Positions 434 through 26,105 of a stretch of DNA of 45,459 nucleotides are shown here, one piece after another. A model generated the notes under the pieces. That model was not told the origin of the DNA. It made no database searches and saw only the letters and a program-made list of their open reading frames with translations. The first letter of the stretch is position 1; each line of letters begins with the position of its first letter. Source of the DNA: Actinomycetes bacterium (lineage in GTDB: Bacteria > Actinomycetota > Acidimicrobiia > Acidimicrobiales > Acidimicrobiaceae); assembly GCA_021784785.1 (NCBI GenBank), contig JAJYHJ010000176.1, positions 1 to 45,459 of the forward strand, read 5' to 3'. A program made the translations under genes and the position numbers.

Positions 434-1480
434 TTACGGCGACGAAGTTGTTGTATAGATCAACATGACTTTAGAACCTGCTACACGATAATGTTCCGTA
501 ATCGTAAGGGTATGATCGCCAAAGGTCGCAGTAAAGGTTCCACTTCCACCATTCGCCTGATTACCTTTAACATCTTCAACGAGATTCGCCAGTGAATCAA
601 ACCTCGTAAGTCCAGCGGCCAGAGTCGTCGCCGTTTGAAGCGGCAGCTTTCCAACGTCTTCAATCTCGCTAGGGTTCTTAGTTGCGATCGCATGAAGCAG
701 CGCGATTAACCACGATACCTCCTTACCCGCCAGTAGATAAGGAGCGCTTGATCCTTCCCATCTTTGACTGGTTGTTCCCGAGATGTCGAATGAGCCCATT
801 GGAAGATAGTTATCAATCAGTGAAAGATTTTGGGAGGCAAACGGTTGTGGCATTCCCGATACTTGGTAGGACGTAGCTCTAGGAACAGGTGGAGGCGTTC
901 CGAGTTGAACGCTTGCAATTAGGTTAGCACCAACTAAGTATCGGTTCGGCGTTAGGTAAAGGGCATTCAGGGGCCAGCAAGCTTCGAGAACGACGCTTGG
1001 ACTCTGACTGTTTCTAAGCGCATATCCAACCGGTACGACCTTATGCCACGCGACACGGAAAACATCCTCATGAGACCGAGTATCGATCTCGAAGTAAGAA
1101 CCGATGGTAAGCTTGTTCAGATTTGAAAACCAACTCACATTGTGAGCCGCTAATACGGAGGTACCCGGAGAACCAACAGGCACACTGGCAGCCAAGTGGC
1201 CGATTGCTACGTTCAAAACAACATCCCCTGTTCCTTGTTCCACGGGAGCAACGAGGCTCAATTCTGGTATTTTTAGTAGCGCTATAACGTTACTAGGCCA
1301 CTGTCTCTTTAAACCAACATGTTCTACTTGAGTTGCTAATTGTTGCCCGACCTTATGATAGTCGTAGTAGAACCAAGCGATCCGGCCAAATATCACCAGT
1401 CCCATAACGACAAGCACGATTCCGGCAAACAAACTCATCTTCCGTACCCCACCTTGATGTGAAGTATGACGACCTCTCAT
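434..1480 (-). CDS. Sortase family protein with long C-terminal extension
   Basis: N-terminal TM; catalytic-like His (VLAAHNVSWF), Cys (VVLEACWPLN) and Arg (LTPNRYLVGA) in sortase order and spacing; about 150 extra residues after the catalytic domain. Confidence 0.8.
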   Translation of the reverse strand: MRGRHTSHQGGVRKMSLFAGIVLVVMGLVIFGRIAWFYYDYHKVGQQLATQVEHVGLKRQWPSNVIALLKIPELSLVAPVEQGTGDVVLNVAIGHLAASVPVGSPGTSVLAAHNVSWFSNLNKLTIGSYFEIDTRSHEDVFRVAWHKVVPVGYALRNSQSPSVVLEACWPLNALYLTPNRYLVGANLIASVQLGTPPPVPRATSYQVSGMPQPFASQNLSLIDNYLPMGSFDISGTTSQRWEGSSAPYLLAGKEVSWLIALLHAIATKNPSEIEDVGKLPLQTATTLAAGLTRFDSLANLVEDVKGNQANGGSGTFTATFGDHTLTITEHYRVAGSKVMLIYTTTSSP

Positions 1481-3465
1481 TAGGAGGGAACCTCACTTGG
1501 TACACCAACCCACAAAGACGTCACGGTAACGCTCGAATTGGACCCAATCGGAGACCAAACACGAACCTCTATAGGGTCTTCGAAATTTGGCGGATAAAAC
1601 CTCGTCACGAAGGGCCATATGCCCTCGTAAAATCCGCTAGGGTCCATGAACTTTGGCGCCTCGAAGGGCAAGGTGACCATCTCTGAGGCCCCCGTACCTC
1701 GCAGATATCTTCTTGCGAGCAACTGCCCTGTAGCATCGTCAAAAACCTGCACCTGAGCTACTCCACTTACCGAAATACGGACAACTGCTACACCGCGTCC
1801 GTTAGGCTTGATATATCCAACGACCCCTTGAGCTACCATGCCATCCTCCGGTCGATTTACAAGGGTACCACTCATAGAACCGGTGCCACTCAAACCTGTA
1901 GCAAAAGGAGAGCCGTGCAGCAATCCTGCCAATATAAAGTTGCTTGACGCTATGGACAAGACACCTCTTGCTGGGCCAGGGTTCCACCTCACCCAATACA
2001 CGCCACCAGGAAGTGGACCAACTACTTTAGCCCCAACCAAATTAGCTACATAAGACAAAGAGCCAAGAATCTCAGCCGGTGAACAGAGTTGGATCCCACG
2101 CCACGGGTCGGCGACTACGTCTACGACACGACCGTCTAAGGGAATTTTACTTAGATGACAGTTTAGTTGTTGCAGATGGCTTGAATGGCTAGCTAGCGCT
2201 CCAAGTGACGCATTTGGAGATACAACCTCGTCATTAGGGCCTATCGCCGCGCTCACGTAACGCAGAGACGCTCCCACCTCTAAGTTCGACGTATTCGTGA
2301 TAGATCCCACCATATGAGTCCCAAATAGACTCAACCACGCGACGGTACTCAATAAAGATCCCAAGGCAACCACGCGACTCAACCGCTGACTCCGCGCAAA
2401 GAGGAAGGAGAGTACGGGACCAGTCCCAAATACAATAAATGCGATCTCTGGAACTACTTGAAACGAGCCAGCGTAAGACACTAATATGCCCGAGAGAGTT
2501 ATAGGTGACGCTACTATAACAATAGCTGTAACTCCGATGAGAGAAAATGCTCCTATGATGCCGGATCCTCCTAGTATCGCCCACTGCTGAGGCCAACCAG
2601 AGATCAGAGCCTTAACGATAACCAAGGGATGAGTAATAGCACCTAGCGCTAAAGTTATAAAGGATCCATTCCTTAAACCAAGGAGGTGACTAATGTTTAA
2701 AAGGGCAAGCCTATCGCTTCGGTTGTCATGCAGTAATGCCGGAACGCCCAATACTAAAAGCGATACACCTATGACGATAGATGCAAGGCGAGTCTTTTTC
2801 CGTACAAACAGCCAAACTCCTATCAAGAGTAGAAGCAGAGCACTTGTATCTCCTGTGAGAGCAAGCAACGAGATAAACGTATACCCCCACCATATCTTGT
2901 CGTCGTCAAACATCAAAATCGCCAAAACGGCTAGAGATGCCTCCAATGCCTGGTAGTGAAAGTCAAAACTATCCGCTTTATATAACCAGACATCGCCAAG
3001 TGCTATGAACGACGGAGCTAGAATAACGATCACCCTATTACTTCCGTGAACCCCACCTCTATGTGCTGCTCTTTTAGCCCATATCGAAGCCAGAAAACCG
3101 ATCGATGCTGTCGGCAGCGCCTGTAGAAGATCCAACAGCACAACGTGAACTGGTAAACGCAAAATATCGACGAACATATAAGCAATGGGCCAGGTTATGA
3201 GCTCGAAATGGCTAGATATATATGGTATCGGGGTGCCAATTAATACCGTAGGGTTAGTAACACCACGAGCGATTTGCATTACCGCACCGGCGAAGCTCTC
3301 GTAATCGCTAGTTAATTCACCGCGAGCATACAGCATCTCACTCTCATATACAAGCACTACAAATTGAATCACGGAGATCGTTGCTGAAGCTAACATAGCC
3401 TTGTCAAAAGTCCTTTTAGCTATACGCTCAGTTTTATGCTCAGATTGCAGTTCAGTAATAGTCAC
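1480..3465 (-). CDS. Polytopic membrane protein, DUF2079-like / GT-C type putative glycosyltransferase
   Basis: 661 aa, many TM segments, early extracytoplasmic acidic motif (SDYESFAGAVMQIARG...SSHFELITWPIAYMF), C-terminal soluble domain. Confidence 0.6.
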   Translation of the reverse strand: MTITELQSEHKTERIAKRTFDKAMLASATISVIQFVVLVYESEMLYARGELTSDYESFAGAVMQIARGVTNPTVLIGTPIPYISSHFELITWPIAYMFVDILRLPVHVVLLDLLQALPTASIGFLASIWAKRAAHRGGVHGSNRVIVILAPSFIALGDVWLYKADSFDFHYQALEASLAVLAILMFDDDKIWWGYTFISLLALTGDTSALLLLLIGVWLFVRKKTRLASIVIGVSLLVLGVPALLHDNRSDRLALLNISHLLGLRNGSFITLALGAITHPLVIVKALISGWPQQWAILGGSGIIGAFSLIGVTAIVIVASPITLSGILVSYAGSFQVVPEIAFIVFGTGPVLSFLFARSQRLSRVVALGSLLSTVAWLSLFGTHMVGSITNTSNLEVGASLRYVSAAIGPNDEVVSPNASLGALASHSSHLQQLNCHLSKIPLDGRVVDVVADPWRGIQLCSPAEILGSLSYVANLVGAKVVGPLPGGVYWVRWNPGPARGVLSIASSNFILAGLLHGSPFATGLSGTGSMSGTLVNRPEDGMVAQGVVGYIKPNGRGVAVVRISVSGVAQVQVFDDATGQLLARRYLRGTGASEMVTLPFEAPKFMDPSGFYEGIWPFVTRFYPPNFEDPIEVRVWSPIGSNSSVTVTSLWVGVPSEVPS

Positions 3466-3509
3466 GATCTACTCTCATCTAAAACTCGCACGACGACCGA
3501 ACTTTCCCG

Positions 3510-5582
3510 CTACCTTTGAACGAAACGTACTGGTACTATCTGTGAGTACCCGTACGGATAGAATCCTGAACTCGAAACCAGGTTCGCTTCAAAGCTAACC
3601 GGGTTGCTCTCAGCAAAGCGATCAACGACTCTAAAGACTGCAACTCCTGTCGCATTAGTAAGTTCCTCGACAGGTGTCGCACCAGGCGATGACTTATTGA
3701 TGCTTGCACTGGAGTATACGAGTCCTCTTTGGGCGTAGATGACTTGTCCCAAAAATACTGGCACTCCCGCTACCTTGACTCTCTGGTCAAACCTATTCAA
3801 AAGCTCTGCCCTTATTTCTATCGGCGCATCCACCTTAATCGACTGATCTACTGCATCGGGAACGAGAGCAACGTGTAGAAGTTCCGGTTTGTAAACTGAG
3901 GTCACTGAAATAGTATGGGTCGAGAACGCTACCATCTGAAAACCTCCAAGTAGAGATGGTTGTGCTGGAAAGTTAGGAGATCCAAGCTTCACGTATCCCG
4001 TTGAACCAGGAGCGATTGTTCGAGGGCCCGAGAGCAAGGTCCAAGGTGAGGTAAAAGAACCTAAAAACTCAGAAGTGTACACAGGGGTGATCGGTCTACT
4101 ACCTGGATTAGCAACTTGTAGCGTCACACTATCAACCGTAGCTAACTGACCAGAGGTATGTATGCCAACAATTTTGAGTTGTTCAGGTGGCGCCGATAGC
4201 GCCCATACCCCAAGCGTTACGAGTAGGAGAGATGATGAGATAATCACCGCAGGAGCTACGATTCTCGACCTTCTTGCTATTTTGTATCTTGGCCACTGCG
4301 ACAGTACAACCATTGTAGCTGGTATCAGGCTTACGAAATAGGAGCCAAAGGATCGAGTTGCAAAAAATAGTGCAATTGACGGAAGCATGAACGACATCCA
4401 TGCCGAGGACTTCCAGTCAAACCAAAGAAATACACACCCACCGACCATAGCCAACACTGACATAACCGTGAGCCACTCTATGCCGCCACCGCCGACTCCA
4501 AAACTCAAGGTGAGAGCCACGAGACCCTGGCCGGATGGCACGATCGAGCCCCTAAGAGGAGTCATAATTCCCAGTATCCACGAGTGGAAATCAATCACCA
4601 TGAATGGAAGCTGCCATATACCGAATCCAAGCCCAGCTAAAGCCACGAAGCGCACTAGACATGTCCGCGCCTTCGCCCAACCAGCTGTGTCGGCGGACCA
4701 CCTTACTACAACTACAGCCAGAAACGGAGCTACTAACCACGGAGTTTGCTTAACCGCCATAGCTACTCCTAGCATCACGGGCGAAATAAAACCCCAGCGT
4801 TTTCCGTCTACGAATCTGCCTGTATAGGCGATCGAGCAGATGAGAAACGGAAGAAACAGTGCATCGGTAACACCTCCAACAGCGTACGCTATGTAAGCAG
4901 ACAGGCTTCCAAGTACTAGTACTAGAGTTCGCCACGAATCTTTTACATACACGACAGAGAGCACAATTGAAACAGCCCAAGCCGAGATATCCATAATTTC
5001 CCCGGCTTGAGCATGAAACCCCAAAAACATAAGCGGCACATAAAGAAGAAACGACAGCGACGGATACGACAGCATTGTCACCGGATGTCCTTGGAAAGTG
5101 AGAGTGTAGGCGTCTGGCGACACTTGATACCGTTGAAAGGCTGCGCCAAGGGAAACTCCATATGGATCTATCCCGTGCAGGAAAAGATGAGCCGCGAATT
5201 GATCGAAAGCTAACTCGTCTGTGGCATAGCTAGGACTCAACAAGATCTCTTGGTAACTCCATGCGCAAAAAGCAGCAACTACGATTCCAACAACCACCCA
5301 GAGTAAGGCTCCATCCCAACCCTTGCGAGCCAGGTAGGGCGCTCCTACTATAACCGTCAATCCTGATGCGATCGAGATCACATCCGCCACCGAGTACCAA
5401 GGGCTTAACTGCATAGCGACTCCGAAACGAAGCCCCCAAAGAATAAGTACTGCCCCTACTAAGATCCAACTCGCGACTTGAACTGGGTACCCATATCTCG
5501 AGGACTCCAAACTGGAAGCAACAACCTCTTCGGTCTCAGTATCAGATGGTAGGATTACCCCAGTACTCAATGTACTGGCCAC
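3510..5582 (-). CDS. Polytopic membrane protein, GT87/DUF2029-like putative glycosyltransferase with C-terminal soluble beta-rich domain
   Basis: 690 aa; DELAFDQFAAHLFLHGIDPYG motif in first loop typical of GT-C polyprenyl-sugar transferases; multiple TMs; C-terminal about 200 aa non-TM. Confidence 0.55.
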   Translation of the reverse strand: MASTLSTGVILPSDTETEEVVASSLESSRYGYPVQVASWILVGAVLILWGLRFGVAMQLSPWYSVADVISIASGLTVIVGAPYLARKGWDGALLWVVVGIVVAAFCAWSYQEILLSPSYATDELAFDQFAAHLFLHGIDPYGVSLGAAFQRYQVSPDAYTLTFQGHPVTMLSYPSLSFLLYVPLMFLGFHAQAGEIMDISAWAVSIVLSVVYVKDSWRTLVLVLGSLSAYIAYAVGGVTDALFLPFLICSIAYTGRFVDGKRWGFISPVMLGVAMAVKQTPWLVAPFLAVVVVRWSADTAGWAKARTCLVRFVALAGLGFGIWQLPFMVIDFHSWILGIMTPLRGSIVPSGQGLVALTLSFGVGGGGIEWLTVMSVLAMVGGCVFLWFDWKSSAWMSFMLPSIALFFATRSFGSYFVSLIPATMVVLSQWPRYKIARRSRIVAPAVIISSSLLLVTLGVWALSAPPEQLKIVGIHTSGQLATVDSVTLQVANPGSRPITPVYTSEFLGSFTSPWTLLSGPRTIAPGSTGYVKLGSPNFPAQPSLLGGFQMVAFSTHTISVTSVYKPELLHVALVPDAVDQSIKVDAPIEIRAELLNRFDQRVKVAGVPVFLGQVIYAQRGLVYSSASINKSSPGATPVEELTNATGVAVFRVVDRFAESNPVSFEANLVSSSGFYPYGYSQIVPVRFVQR

Positions 5583-6421
5583 TCCTGGAGGTTCGACTTA
5601 CCTGATTTAGTTGCCAGCTCTATAAGACTCTTTCCCGCAAGGTCGGTAGTCAAAGATACTGACCCTGTGGGAGCCGGTAATGCTCGAACATCTGACTCGG
5701 TATTTAGGTCAACAACAGCTACGTTACGAATGCCGTTTCGTCCCTTGAGCACAAACATCTGCGTCCCCGACGGTGACATTACAGTACTTATGCCCGAGTG
5801 TCCCACCCGGAACTGCCCCACCTTTTGAGCGGTCGATACCGCGTAAACGTCCATCATTCCTCCACTTTCCAAGCCATATAAGTAATTTCCACCGACAGAC
5901 ATGCAGACAGATACGGTGTTTGAGACTAGAGGTATCGAAGAAGTTGCTTGGTTGGTATTTGTATCCAAGAACGCGACAGCTCGAACATTCGCGCTACCCA
6001 CTAAGACTAGCATTGTAGATCCATTTCCATCGGCGCTCATGCCGATTACAGGGCCCGACATCGGAACCGTCGCTACCTTAGCCCCGCTAATTTGATAAAG
6101 ATCAACAGCACCAGCACTGCCGTTCGCTAGGCCAACTCCTATCACGCCGTTGGGAAGCTCCGTTATACTCGTCGCTGCATTCGACACCGAAAAACTAGAT
6201 AGTTCCTTGGAGTCGGCGAGATTAAATACGAAAACACCCATTGATTTTTCCGAGCCTGCCAAAAGCGCAATTTCACCATTAGACTGTAAAGGACCGAGGG
6301 AAAGGGAGTTTGCCGGGACTCCCAGAATCTTCTCCGGTTTTGCAGTTGCGTGCTTTGACTGCGGCGTCTTTGCAGACGTGGCTTGTGAACCGCAACTTGA
6401 AAGCACAGCAGTAACTGCCAA
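5567..6421 (-). CDS. Putative beta-propeller (YVTN/WD-like) lipoprotein
   Basis: Lipobox-like LSSC near N-terminus; repeated beta-strand motifs. Start uncertain: the reading frame continues upstream as TPKFILAFLAVTAVLSSC. Confidence 0.55.
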   Translation of the reverse strand: MAVTAVLSSCGSQATSAKTPQSKHATAKPEKILGVPANSLSLGPLQSNGEIALLAGSEKSMGVFVFNLADSKELSSFSVSNAATSITELPNGVIGVGLANGSAGAVDLYQISGAKVATVPMSGPVIGMSADGNGSTMLVLVGSANVRAVAFLDTNTNQATSSIPLVSNTVSVCMSVGGNYLYGLESGGMMDVYAVSTAQKVGQFRVGHSGISTVMSPSGTQMFVLKGRNGIRNVAVVDLNTESDVRALPAPTGSVSLTTDLAGKSLIELATKSGKSNLQEWPVH

Positions 6422-6453
6422 AAAAGCTAGGATAAATTTAGGCGTATGTATAG

Positions 6454-7176
6454 TTAGCGGACCGAAGATGTTCGTCTCCTCGCAGAGTAGATCACCGCCG
6501 CGCCGCCCAAAACCAAGATACCCGCGGTCACACCTTCAGGGAGAAAATTCTTACCAGTTACGGGGGAAGTGGCCCCAGGAACCGTAGCCGAAACGGGATT
6601 AGCCACTGCAAAACCAGGATCTGATGAAAATGTAATTACAGCCGATCCAGAACCTGTAGTCGCATTACTGTAAATTACCGGCGATCCGGATGTCGGAAAC
6701 TCGATCACTTTAGACTGTGATGTTATAGCACTTGCTTGAATCTTCACCGTTAGAGGATATGCAAAGTTTCCACTTAGTGCCGCACCGGTGGAAGGATCTA
6801 CGATCTCTATGCCAACTCCAGAACCGATCGAATAACTGCTCAGATTCAAAGCGGAAAGCGATCCTTGTAGCTGAGATAACGTCGGCTCAGTTACAACTAC
6901 CTGAACCGTTGTATTCCCAAAAGCACCCGCAGGAATCGATATAGTCACATTATTACCGTTTGCCGTCGTAGAGACAACTTGCACATTAGTCGAAGGCGCT
7001 ATCACCTGCGTGGCAACCACCGTAGAAAAACCGGGGGCCACTGGTGCGGTAGCAGAACTGGGCGGAGTTGACGACCCGCTCGCCCACGCAGCAGTACTAA
7101 AAAGAGAAACAGCGCCGACCAATCCAACGGCACCTACTGCAGCTCTAACACCAACGTACTTCGATGACTTTAGCAA
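6454..7176 (-). CDS. Secreted cell-surface protein with sorting-signal-like C-terminus
   Basis: Signal peptide (VGAVSLFSTAAWASG), Ser/Thr-rich body, C-terminal LPEGV + hydrophobic stretch + RRR; TTG start preceded by GGGAGG. Confidence 0.65.
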   Translation of the reverse strand: MLKSSKYVGVRAAVGAVGLVGAVSLFSTAAWASGSSTPPSSATAPVAPGFSTVVATQVIAPSTNVQVVSTTANGNNVTISIPAGAFGNTTVQVVVTEPTLSQLQGSLSALNLSSYSIGSGVGIEIVDPSTGAALSGNFAYPLTVKIQASAITSQSKVIEFPTSGSPVIYSNATTGSGSAVITFSSDPGFAVANPVSATVPGATSPVTGKNFLPEGVTAGILVLGGAAVIYSARRRTSSVR

Positions 7177-7261
7177 TTTAACCTCCCACGGAGTTAATGC
7201 TTGATTTTTGACTTACGTATCTATCGGCTTATACTCAGCATTAAATAAGTTATATCTTAAT

Positions 7262-7281
7262 ATAAGCCACTGATGGCTTAT
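7262..7281. repeat. Perfect inverted repeat ATAAGCCA-CTGA-TGGCTTAT upstream of surface-protein operon
   Basis: 8-bp perfect stem; further GGCTTATA copy at 7226-7233 and inverse TATAAGCC at 7261-7268. Confidence 0.6.
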
Positions 7282-7419
7282 CGAGATCACACTTCACGTT
7301 AGGTGTTTCAGGTAACTCTCAGAGTGCTAATCAAATGGCGGGGTTTATGGTTCGGTATTTGTCAGACGATCAAAACGAAACAACACGGCATTGCGATCAC
7401 GCCCTCAAGGTCAAAGGCA

Positions 7420-8466
7420 CTATTTCTGCAAGCCTCTACTGAACTCGGTTCTCGTCCTCGGCAAGGCATCAGGATAGTTCGACGCAATAAAGTCGATCAG
7501 TCTCTCTCGGACTTCGCACTGAAGATCCCAGGAGGTTGAACTGTCTCTTGCACTCATCAGCGCCCTAAGTTGCATAGTTGTAGAGCTAGAACTAACAACC
7601 TGCAATCTCGCCAAGTTTTTATCCCAGTTAGGTGACGTCGCCAAAATCTGCACAAAAGCTTGACGTATCTCTTCGATCGGGGCTTTGAAGTCCACATCGA
7701 GCAGCACCCACCCTAAGATATCCGAAGAGGACTTAGTCCAGTTCTCAAAAGGATTGGTTATGAGGTAAGAGATAGGGAGAACAAGTCTTCTCATGTCCCA
7801 AACTCGCACAACCACATATGTAAGGGCTATCTCCTCTATCCTGCCCCAATGACCGTCAACCACTACCACGTCGTCTATGCGAATAGGTTGAGATATTGCG
7901 ATCTGAATACCCGCTACAACGTTCGTGGCCGTAGGTTTAGCTGCTACCGCTGCTACGATACCGACTAGTCCAGCAGAAGCAAGAAGTCCGGTTCCTAAGG
8001 CTCTAACCTGTCCAAAAGTAAGTAGCACCATCCCGATCGCTATTACCGAGATGGCTGCCACCGCTACCCTTCTAAGTACGATGATCTGAGTGTGAATTCG
8101 CCTTGCCTTCAAGTTATCGGTAACATCGATGCGGTAACGTGCAAGCACAACGTCTTCAAAAACGTAGGTCATGACAACCGCAGTCCATGCCAAGATCACG
8201 ATTAATGCTATGCCACCAGCGTGTAGGAGTTCGGAGGTTAAATCTGAAGGGAGACGAAAAGTTGGAAGAAAAGCCTCCAAAAGTAGCAGCGGAATAAGGA
8301 CACGACTTGGCTTTTTCAGCCGTCTCAAGGCCGACCTCTCAAATACGGAGGAGTGAGACGCCTTAACCTTCGCCGCCAGTCGTCTAAAGCCGACTATATG
8401 GACAGATGTAGCTACAAGTACTATGAAAATGGCAGCAATAAGGTATAGATATGTCGAACTTTGCAT
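7420..8466 (-). CDS. MscS-family mechanosensitive ion channel protein
   Basis: TM region followed by VGIVAAVAAKPTATNVVAGIQIAISQPIRIDDVVVVDGHWGRIEEIALTYVVVR, classic MscS pore/beta domain. Confidence 0.85.
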   Translation of the reverse strand: MQSSTYLYLIAAIFIVLVATSVHIVGFRRLAAKVKASHSSVFERSALRRLKKPSRVLIPLLLLEAFLPTFRLPSDLTSELLHAGGIALIVILAWTAVVMTYVFEDVVLARYRIDVTDNLKARRIHTQIIVLRRVAVAAISVIAIGMVLLTFGQVRALGTGLLASAGLVGIVAAVAAKPTATNVVAGIQIAISQPIRIDDVVVVDGHWGRIEEIALTYVVVRVWDMRRLVLPISYLITNPFENWTKSSSDILGWVLLDVDFKAPIEEIRQAFVQILATSPNWDKNLARLQVVSSSSTTMQLRALMSARDSSTSWDLQCEVRERLIDFIASNYPDALPRTRTEFSRGLQK

Positions 8467-23256: not shown

Positions 23257-24786
23257 ATGACCTATCAAGAATCAGGCCAACCCACTCCAACAAGGCCAAC
23301 CCACTCCAACAAGGCCAGAAAGAGTCGAGCCAAAAGACTCCGCCGTAGTGGACTAATTATAGCTTTGGTCCTCATATTGCTGGGAGGGTCTTTCTACCTC
23401 TATGCGCTTTTCCGATTCAATCAGATCAATAAAGTGGGAGTGTCGAGTCTCTCAAAGACCATAGGATCTCAACCTTTCAATATCCTCCTTGTAGGCGACA
23501 ATACGCGAACGGGACTCAATCCAGCACAAGCCAAGTACTTTGGCACGGCTGCTCAAGTTGGAGGGGGAAGAAGCGACGTAACCATGATCGCTCACTTCAA
23601 CCCTGCCAACTCTACCGTATCGCTAGTTTCAATTCCTCGAGATCTTTTTATGCCGATACCCAACTCAACCACCGCAAATCGCGTCGATGACGCACTCAAT
23701 GTGTCACCAGAGCAGTTGGTAAAAACCATAGAAGACGATCTCGGAATTCCAATTCAACGCTACGTCGAGTTGAACTTTGACTCGTTTCAAAACGTCGTGA
23801 ACGCTTTAGGTGGGGTGAAGATGTACTTCCCTATGCCGGTAAAGGATGCCTACTCAGGATTAAATGTCAAGACACCAGGATGTAAGCTGTTGAATGGATT
23901 TCAAGCACTTGAACTTGTTAGAGCTCGCCACCTCTACTACTACGAAAACGGCGTCTGGACCGAAGATCCCCTCGGAGACCTAAGTCGCATTCGTCGAGAC
24001 CATGAGTTCCTAAAGGTTCTAGCGGCTCAGGTGAGGGCGAAGGGGCTATTAAATCCATTGGAGCTAAACTCACTCATAGGCGGTGTCACCAAGTATCTAA
24101 CCGTCGACTCCGGATTCACATTAACTGACATGATCTCCATCGCAGAACAGTTTCGAAACGTAAATCTCTCAAATACTCCAACGATCACCTTGCCAATCGC
24201 ACTTGAAAATAACTTCGTCTACGATAACGCAAACTATGGAGACGTAGTATTTCCGGCTCAGCCTCAAGATCAGCAAGTAATCGACAAGTATCTAGGTCTC
24301 ACAGTTCCCAATATTCCAACAAGTGCAATCACTGTCTCTGTAATGAATGGAAGTGGAACTTATGATCAAGCTACCCAGGTTTCACAGTCTCTTCGAGCTC
24401 TCGGATATAAGATTGGCACGGTTGGAAACGCAAAGGTTCGCTCCACCCCCGCTGAGACCATCATCCGATACACTCCTGGACACCAACAACAAGCCGAGGT
24501 CCTCTTGAACTCCCTATCCGGCGCGGTTATTATGGGAATGGTCCAACACACCGCAACCGGTACTCCCATCGAGTTAGTCACCGGAACCGGATTAGTTGTA
24601 GCTCCACCTCCGAGTGCATCATCTTCCTCACCAACTAGTGCGACTCCAACAACTGCCGCATCCACAACAACTGCCGCCAAAACCGCGCAACCAAGCACTA
24701 CAGCCGTGACGGCTCCAATCACGCTTCCCGCGACTCAGTCGAATCAACCACTGCAACCATGGGATCCTCGAGCATGTCCATCTTAA
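23257..24786 (+). CDS. LytR-CpsA-Psr (LCP) family wall-polymer ligase with LytR_C domain
   Basis: Cytoplasmic basic N-term + TM; FNILLVGDNTR, GGGRSDVTMIAHFNP, VSLVSIPRDLFMPIP, ELVRARHLYYYENG; C-terminal VSVMNGSGTYDQATQVSQSLRALGY; Ser/Thr/Pro tail. Confidence 0.92.
   Translation: MTYQESGQPTPTRPTHSNKARKSRAKRLRRSGLIIALVLILLGGSFYLYALFRFNQINKVGVSSLSKTIGSQPFNILLVGDNTRTGLNPAQAKYFGTAAQVGGGRSDVTMIAHFNPANSTVSLVSIPRDLFMPIPNSTTANRVDDALNVSPEQLVKTIEDDLGIPIQRYVELNFDSFQNVVNALGGVKMYFPMPVKDAYSGLNVKTPGCKLLNGFQALELVRARHLYYYENGVWTEDPLGDLSRIRRDHEFLKVLAAQVRAKGLLNPLELNSLIGGVTKYLTVDSGFTLTDMISIAEQFRNVNLSNTPTITLPIALENNFVYDNANYGDVVFPAQPQDQQVIDKYLGLTVPNIPTSAITVSVMNGSGTYDQATQVSQSLRALGYKIGTVGNAKVRSTPAETIIRYTPGHQQQAEVLLNSLSGAVIMGMVQHTATGTPIELVTGTGLVVAPPPSASSSSPTSATPTTAASTTTAAKTAQPSTTAVTAPITLPATQSNQPLQPWDPRACPS
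23274..23311 (+). repeat. Tandem 19-bp duplication within the 5' end of the LCP gene
   Basis: AGGCCAACCCACTCCAACA x2 (23274-23292, 23293-23311), followed by partial third AGGCCA. Confidence 0.95.
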
Positions 24787-24896: not shown

Positions 24897-26105
24897 ATGA
24901 GCATTCGCGAGCGCCTGTACCCACGAGAACAGGAGCTATCCGTTCTCGTGCGCCACTGCTCAGATGCTCGTTATGTCTGGAACTTAGCGCTCGAACAACG
25001 CAACTTATGGGTTAGAGGACGGTCACAGCATATTACCTACAACACACAAGCCAACGAACTTGCACAAGTCCGTAAAGTGACTTGGCTTAGTGAAGGTTCC
25101 TCTGCAATCTAGCAACAGGCTTTACGAGACTTAGACCGAGCCTTTCAAAACTGGTGGAAGCGACCGGATCACTTCGGACGACCCACGTGGCGTAAGAAGG
25201 ATATCAATGAAGGGTTTGCCATTAGAGACTTGTCCGTTCGACGATTAAATCGCAAGTGGGGTCAGGTCTTCATCCCCAAGTGTGGTTGGGTGAAGTTCCG
25301 TGTTACACGACAGTGGAATGACATAGAACATTCTTCCTCAGCCCGAGTCACTAAAGATAGATCTGGACGATGGTTTGTGAGCTTTACTTATCCAGCTCCA
25401 CAAATAGAACGTGTCTCAACCGGCGAGATAATTGGTTTAGATATGGGTGTTACTCACACCATAACTAAATCTAATGGACGGTTTCTCGACATGCCACAGT
25501 TGTTATCTGAAGCAGAACAACAACGTAAGCGAAGACTACAAAGAAAGCTTGCTCGACAGGTCAAAGGCTCTAATCGTCGTAAGGTTACCAAACTAGATCT
25601 AGCTAAGTTATCGGCTAAAGAGACAGATCGTCGTAAGGATTGGATTGAAAAGACGACGACTGATCTAGTGAGAAGCTATGACTTGATCGCACTAGAGAAT
25701 CTAAAGATTAAGAACATGACTAAATCAACTAAGGGCACAATCCAGAGTCCAGGCAAGAACGTCGCTCAGAAAGCCGGTCTAAACAGATCTATTCTCGAAC
25801 AAAGTTGGGGTATGTTTCGTCAACGGCTAACAGATAAAGCCAGCAGCGCCACGACTCCAGTTGAAATAATCACAATCAATCCTGCATATACAAGTCAACG
25901 TTGTTCCAAGTGTGGTCACACGAACAAAAGAAATCGCAAGAGCCAAGCTATCTTTTGTTGTAAAGTGTGCAGATACACAAACAACGCAGACGTAAATGCA
26001 GCTAAGAATATAATCTCAACCGCCGCAGGGCTTGCGGTCACAGAGCGTGGAGGGATATCGCACAGCGACCCAACGAAGCGCACCACCAATCCTAAAGCTG
26101 CGTAA
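24897..26105 (+). pseudogene. tnpB: RNA-guided endonuclease TnpB, interrupted by in-frame amber codon at 25110-25112
   Basis: Same frame reads ...WLSEGSSAI*QQALRDLDRAFQNWW...; RuvC residues (GLDMGVTHT, LIALENLKIKNM, TNNADVNAAKNI) and zinc ribbon (CSKC...CCKVC) are intact downstream. Confidence 0.9.

What the first reader, a model, noticed from the sequence alone, without database searches (positions are those of the whole stretch)
434..7176. Five-gene locus coupling a sortase, two GT-C-like membrane enzymes, a lipoprotein and a surface protein
Sequence: five co-directional genes, several overlapping or nearly so (1480/1480, 5567-5582), run from a secreted protein with a C-terminal sorting-like tail to a sortase. 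Knowledge: sortases often sit beside their substrates, and GT-C enzymes use polyprenyl-sugar donors on the outer face. Inference: this may be a dedicated pathway that exports, O-glycosylates and wall-anchors the 240-aa protein, a candidate undescribed surface module.
Basis: partly seen in the sequence, partly recalled or inferred. Interest (0 to 1): 0.7.

Follow-up and report, generated by a model that had tools for sequence, protein, structure and literature searches.

The report
Sortase–glycosyltransferase surface-protein cassette of acidophiles
Five neighbouring genes form a real, evolutionarily conserved kit, shared by distantly related Gram-positive bacteria that mostly live in acid, which very likely anchors one small surface protein to the cell wall with its own unusual sortase and probably decorates it with sugars first.

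Summary
The five-gene locus is real and conserved. The order surface protein (SURF) – beta-propeller lipoprotein (LIPO) – membrane enzyme (GT690) – DUF2079 membrane enzyme (GT661) – sortase (SRT) recurs in the window's family, including Acidimicrobium ferrooxidans. Related cassettes occur in other Actinomycetota and in Bacillota (Sulfobacillus, Alicyclobacillus). Both membrane enzymes are GT-C-like: GT661 matches EmbC, STT3, ArnT and PglB by predicted fold; GT690 matches GT87 by profile (97%; controls 2% or less). Many cassettes add a polyprenyl-phosphate-sugar-synthase-like GT2, and Sulfobacillus-type ones an ArnE/ArnF-like flippase. SURF ends in a sorting signal that is not LPxTG: AT[STA][PVA]xTG[KE]P[FLVI]. 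Genomes whose SURF has this tail nearly always encode the SRT-type sortase (21 of 22); those with a tail-less SURF nearly never do (1 of 10). This ties sortase to substrate, though only about five contrasts are phylogenetically independent. SRT falls below every class-specific NCBIfam sortase cut-off and carries an unassigned ~150-aa C-terminal domain. Wall anchoring of SURF is well supported; its O-glycosylation is a reasonable inference, not shown. I found no description of the cassette in the papers searched. Closest known: the Streptococcus mutans Pgf system. Verdict: new variant of a known kind.

The parts
6454..7176 (-). SURF: secreted, Ser/Thr-rich (29%) 240-aa surface protein, presumed sortase substrate and possible glycan acceptor
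   Evidence: ORF; homologues in 9 of 79 genomes searched, own included; alignment; S+T content
6541..6573 (-). Non-LPxTG sorting signal ATSPVTGKNFL (aa 202-212), followed by a hydrophobic segment and RRR tail
   Evidence: TGK invariant in 8; T at -4, T and G invariant in 24 of 24 cassette tails, Leu at -3 in 0 of 24
5567..6421 (-). LIPO: beta-propeller protein with lipobox LSSC; true start uncertain, probably upstream of TTG 6421
   Evidence: Cys10, Gly11 invariant in 6; profile matches PDB 1l0q surface-layer protein, E 5e-19
3510..5570 (-). GT690: GT87-like GT-C membrane glycosyltransferase with extracytoplasmic Ig-like C-terminal region
   Evidence: hhalign to GT87 97.3%, E 2e-11, controls <=1.9%; model pLDDT 88.5; Ig-like fold hits
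5214..5219 (-). Asp118-Glu119 of GT690 (YxTDE motif in the first long extracytoplasmic loop), putative catalytic acid pair
   Evidence: Invariant in 35 homologues
1480..3465 (-). GT661: DUF2079-family GT-C glycosyltransferase with CBM-like C-terminal domain
   Evidence: DUF2079 matched by 17 of 20 homologues, best E 1e-20; fold hits EmbC, STT3, ArnT, PglB and CBM4/6/29
434..1480 (-). SRT: unclassified sortase with N-terminal anchor, catalytic domain (H113, C168, R180) and ~150-aa C-terminal domain (about 437-898)
   Evidence: (below every class-specific NCBIfam cut-off)

Best explanation
The locus is a dedicated surface-display cassette. SURF is exported by its own signal peptide. GT690 and GT661, acting outside the membrane on polyprenyl-phosphate sugars, glycosylate it (most likely O-linked in its Ser/Thr-rich part). 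The donor is made by a polyprenyl-phosphate-sugar synthase and flipped by an ArnE/F-type flippase: both lie inside Sulfobacillus-type cassettes, the synthase also in several actinobacterial ones, and neither in the window's cassette, whose genome has GT2 candidates elsewhere. SRT then cleaves SURF between T and G of the ATSPVTG-K signal and joins it to the wall. LIPO, on the outer membrane face, probably binds or scaffolds SURF or the glycan. Shown by computation: gene set and order, GT-C membership, sorting tail, tail/sortase coupling. Inferred: acceptor, sugar, cleavage site, role of LIPO.
For: Same gene order in several genera of the family and related cassettes across Actinomycetota and Bacillota, including complete isolate genomes. 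A smaller SURF-GT690-SRT version occurs (L050/L092, L091, L093). GT2 resembling PpgS/AglJ and, in Sulfobacillus-type cassettes, an ArnE/F-like protein lie between GT690 and GT661. GT-C assignment. Tail and SRT family co-vary, 21/22 vs 1/10, Fisher p 3e-6 ignoring relatedness; 3-4 of 5 independent pairs agree, none disagree. SRT paralogues elsewhere sit beside unrelated proteins with similar xxxTG[KER][PF]W tails.
Against: No direct evidence for glycosylation of SURF or for its glycan. GT661's fold and CBM-like C-terminus also recall wall-polysaccharide polymerases (Emb). Some cassettes have no sortase, so the glycosyltransferases do not need anchoring. The tree-aware test cannot reach significance with 5 pairs. 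One tailed genome (L069, a MAG) lacks SRT and one tail-less genome (L096) has it. The fold search with the GT690 model returned only its Ig-like region among the top 50, so its GT-C assignment rests on profiles, conserved motif and topology.
Confidence: 0.58

Rival explanations
1. The two GT-C enzymes build a wall or lipid-linked glycan (as Emb enzymes build arabinan), and SURF with LIPO only binds or organises that glycan; SRT anchors SURF but SURF is not itself glycosylated.
For: GT661's best PDB fold hit is EmbC and it has a CBM-like C-terminal domain; tail-less SURFs often end in basic residues, which could bind the wall non-covalently; cassettes without sortase exist.
Against: SURF is beside GT690 in 36 of 41 evaluable loci, and reduced cassettes keep SURF-GT690-SRT and drop GT661 and LIPO, which points to GT690 acting on SURF.
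Confidence: 0.27
2. SRT is a general sortase that happens to sit in the cassette, and SURF is not its substrate.
For: SRT paralogues occur away from the cassette with other likely substrates; the window's genome has two further sortases.
Against: Presence of the SRT family follows presence of the SURF tail across phyla.
Confidence: 0.08
3. The genes are neighbours by chance or hitch-hiking on transferred DNA and have no joint function.
For: Patchy, cross-phylum distribution.
Against: Order and content kept at protein identities down to about 28-35% over several genera and two phyla.
Confidence: 0.03

Closest known systems
Pgf system of Streptococcus mutans (pgfS-pgfM1-pgfE-pgfM2, next to cnm; PMC5856776)
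   Same: A GT2 gene and two polytopic membrane proteins lie beside a wall-anchored (LPXTG) surface protein that they modify; anchoring follows modification.
   Different: The window cassette includes its own sortase and a beta-propeller lipoprotein, lacks an epimerase, uses a non-LPxTG signal, and its proteins were not matched to Pgf beyond weak GT2 similarity in related cassettes (NF047588, E 3e-6 to 1e-5).
LcpA-GspA-SrtA glycoprotein anchoring in Actinomyces oris (PMC6381275)
   Same: Glycosylation of an actinobacterial surface protein followed by sortase anchoring; glycosylation gene linked to the substrate gene.
   Different: The glycan is attached by an LCP phosphotransferase and anchoring is by a housekeeping sortase; no GT-C enzymes in the linked pair.
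Arn pathway ArnC-ArnE/F-ArnT (polyprenyl-phosphate-sugar to lipid A)
   Same: Same logic in Sulfobacillus-type cassettes: GT2, ArnE/F-like flippase, GT-C transferase.
   Different: No outer membrane or lipid A expected in these Gram-positives; matches are below the equivalog cut-offs.
Class E sortases (SrtE1, LAXTG signal; PMC5148588) and class D sortases
   Same: Sortase fold, membrane anchor, non-canonical signal in actinobacteria.
   Different: SRT scores 33-49 bits against class cut-offs of 160-165, has an extra ~150-aa C-terminal domain, and its signals lack the leucine.

Membership tests
Sortase (Pfam PF04203) | Profile match over curated cut-off with catalytic His-Cys-Arg | tested here: met
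   47.6 vs 26.6 bits; H113, C168, R180 invariant in 10
Sortase classes C, D, E, GN (NCBIfam) | Score over the class cut-off | tested here: not met
   Best is class D, 49.1 vs 165 bits; the other listed classes also fail
LPxTG-type sorting signal | L-P-x-T-G, hydrophobic stretch, basic tail | tested here: not met
   TG, hydrophobic stretch and basic tail present; Leu absent in 24 of 24, Pro present in 13 of 24
GT-C glycosyltransferase: GT661 | DUF2079/GT-C profile or fold, conserved acidic residue in first outer loop | tested here: met
   17 of 20 homologues hit DUF2079 (the window copy itself is just under cut-off, 26.5 vs 28.2); fold hits EmbC, STT3, ArnT, PglB; D54 invariant
GT-C glycosyltransferase: GT690 as GT87-like | Profile similarity to GT87 and conserved DE motif in the first outer loop | tested here: met
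   hhalign 97.3%, controls MFS 0.5% and reversed GT87 1.9%; D118 E119 invariant; no Pfam hit over cut-off
GT-C glycosyltransferase: GT690 by fold | GT-C fold match in the PDB | tested here: inconclusive
   Top 50 matches are dominated by the Ig-like C-terminal region; membrane part could not be searched alone
Pgf-type surface-protein glycosylation | Glycan on the surface protein that depends on the GT genes | not testable with these tools
   Needs glycoproteomics
Pgf-type surface-protein glycosylation | GT2 + two membrane GT proteins linked to a sorted surface protein | tested here: inconclusive
   Met in Sulfobacillus-type cassettes and genus g5; the window cassette itself lacks the GT2
Bacterial lipoprotein (LIPO) | Signal peptide with lipobox Cys | tested here: inconclusive
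   Cys invariant in 6 homologues; no canonical start giving a full signal peptide in the window or in G002

The most novel reading that the evidence does not exclude
SRT defines an undescribed sortase class, with a C-terminal accessory domain and a leucine-free AT[STA][PVA]xTG[KE]P[FW]-type signal. It works with two GT-C enzymes as a self-contained system that glycosylates and wall-anchors one protein, and the cassette has moved between acid-living Actinomycetota and Bacillota.
Probability: 0.45. Interest if true: 0.72.

Novelty: new variant of a known kind. Interest (0 to 1): 0.58.

Why it matters
How Gram-positive bacteria display and protect surface proteins at very low pH is largely unknown. 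This cassette offers one conserved surface protein, one dedicated sortase with a new recognition motif and a defined glycosylation gene set, in cultured acidophiles used in biomining. It makes sortase specificity without the usual leucine, and coupling of glycosylation to anchoring, directly testable, and could supply a new orthogonal sortase for protein ligation.

Tried and rejected
Apparent GT690-sortase and GT690-GT661 fusions (L074, L086, L089, L091, L093) looked like strong evidence but were spurious long open frames overlapping in another frame. PDB sequence searches with GT690, GT661 and SURF profiles found nothing. The fold search with GT690 was swamped by antibody-like matches to its Ig-like domain. 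Cry-toxin matches of GT661 were rejected: short matches (about 190 columns) with TM-scores under 0.2. No plasmid record encodes GT690. Literature searches for sortase with DUF2079, Sulfobacillus, Acidimicrobi* or GT-C found no description. Considered and rejected: pilus-polymerising sortase as the main role (no pilin-like repeat proteins in the cassette).

Full report
What is there. The window starts at the beginning of a contig (G000:C22) of a 2.39-Mb, 88% complete genome. Five minus-strand ORFs follow one another with short gaps or overlaps: SURF 7176-6454, LIPO 6421-5567, GT690 (likely start TTG 5570) to 3510, GT661 3465-1480 and SRT 1480-434. Upstream genes (mscS-like, priA-like, metK) read as ordinary housekeeping genes, and the mscS-SURF junction is kept in a same-genus genome whose contig ends inside LIPO (L048).

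Conservation in the family. The five-gene order is present in genomes G004, G007, G010, G013 and G029, from three genera besides the window's own (g2, g5, g8). G010 is 2,158,157 bp, the published length of the Acidimicrobium ferrooxidans type strain (PMC3035218). In genus g5 a GT2 gene sits between GT661 and SRT. G005 (a further genus, g3) has a reduced SURF-GT690-SRT version. The distribution is patchy: 9 of 79 genomes searched, own included, have SURF.

Conservation beyond the family. A profile scan of GTDB genomes with GT690 returned 40 loci in Actinomycetota and Bacillota, including complete genomes of Sulfobacillus thermotolerans Kr1, Alicyclobacillus sp. ALC3 and Conexibacter sp. DBS9H8, which argues against MAG contamination. 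With iterated profiles, my count over these loci plus the window and four near relatives is SURF beside GT690 in 36 of 41 evaluable loci. LIPO is in 31, GT661 in 26 and SRT in 17 of 45 loci, many of which are cut by contig ends. Two of the 45 (L067, L092) are re-finds of G004 and G005. Sulfobacillus-type cassettes read SURF-LIPO-GT690-flippase-GT2-GT661, then SRT (on the other strand) where present. The small protein is EamA/SMR-like and nearest to ArnE and ArnF (E 1e-15 to 2e-12, below the equivalog cut-offs); the GT2 is nearest to AglJ and PpgS, polyprenyl/dolichyl-phosphate-sugar synthases.

The membrane enzymes. GT661: 17 of 20 homologues hit DUF2079, and its model (pLDDT 80) finds EmbC, human STT3, ArnT and PglB among the top PDB hits, with CBM4/6/29 matches to its C-terminal domain. 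GT690: no Pfam hit over cut-off, but its profile aligns with GT87 at 97.3% probability over 279 columns, against 0.5% for MFS transporters and 1.9% for a reversed GT87 control. The GT690 of G004 was also hit weakly by the GT87 model. A TDE motif is invariant in 35 homologues. Its model (pLDDT 88.5) has an Ig-like C-terminal region that dominated the fold search, so its fold class was not confirmed structurally. That DUF2079 and GT87 belong to the GT-C superfamily is from my own knowledge of Pfam and CAZy.

The sorting signal and the sortase. In 24 cassette tails the pattern is A-T-[STA]-[PVA]-x-T-G-[KEV]-P-[FLVI]; T at -4 and TG are invariant, and leucine at the LPxTG leucine position never occurs. 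Sortase paralogues of the same family elsewhere sit beside unrelated proteins with tails such as VPASHTGEPWSG. SRT is below every class-specific NCBIfam cut-off and all 10 aligned members have a ~150-aa C-terminal extension with no Pfam assignment.

A natural experiment. Some cassettes encode a SURF without any sorting tail. I asked whether those genomes have an SRT-family sortase (at least 100 bits with the SRT profile). Tailed SURF: 21 of 22 yes. Tail-less SURF: 1 of 10 yes. Fisher p is 3e-6, but sequences are related: on the GT690 tree both traits change six times, and of 5 independent pairs 3-4 agree and none disagree (p 0.125-0.25, and fewer than 6 pairs cannot reach 0.05). Both states occur within Bacillota and within Actinomycetota. 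This is the best evidence that SRT acts on SURF.

Mechanism. See the best explanation. Anchoring of SURF by SRT I put at about 0.85. That SURF is the acceptor of the glycan I put at about 0.6, on the SURF-GT690 pairing, the reduced cassettes and the 29% Ser+Thr in mature SURF against a mean of 15% for window ORFs. The window genome has no GT2 in the cassette but four GT2 hits elsewhere, best 87 bits. The role of LIPO is a guess from its beta-propeller similarity to a surface-layer protein.

Compared with what is known. The closest functional parallel is the S. mutans Pgf operon, followed by A. oris LcpA-GspA. No paper found links sortases to DUF2079 or to acidophiles in this way, but only open-access text was searchable. 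The parts are of known kinds; the combination, the leucine-free signal and the sortase extension are new here, hence 'new variant of a known kind'. That most hosts live in acid rests on the named isolates and on my reading of record titles; a few loci come from soil, bog, permafrost or freshwater records.

Noticed in passing
window 6421-6456 (minus strand): LIPO has no ATG/GTG/TTG that would give a full-length signal peptide; the frame is open upstream of TTG 6421 and the same is true in same-genus G002 (L048). A rare start codon or another device may be used.
   Followed up: partly
L063, L064, L068, L071, L076, L078, L096: Several tail-less SURF proteins end in basic residues or a lysine-rich tail (e.g. 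HKKSRKR, PAPKKHKK), perhaps a non-covalent way of holding on to the wall.
   Followed up: no
L022, L024, L028, L030, L031, L056, L057, L059, L060, L126, L128: Paralogues of the SRT sortase sit near unrelated secreted proteins with xxxTG[KER][PF]W tails: a second substrate set of the same sortase family.
   Followed up: partly
L051 (G000:C143) 6510-8223; L052 (G000:C19) 7386-8453: The window genome has two more sortases: one beside a 340-aa protein with an STG tail, the other (SRT family) with no tailed neighbour found.
   Followed up: partly
L066 15893-17470; L065 20859-21953; L069 9299-10648: A second GT661-like (DUF2079-type) protein lies near some Bacillota cassettes, in L066 between GT661 and SRT.
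   Followed up: no
window 23257-24786: LytR-CpsA-Psr-like protein; LCP proteins attach glycans to a sorted protein in Actinomyces oris, so it is a possible partner. Identified by eye only.
   Followed up: no
window 25230-26105: TnpB-like ORF of an insertion element, identified by eye from its zinc-finger-like cysteine motif.
   Followed up: no
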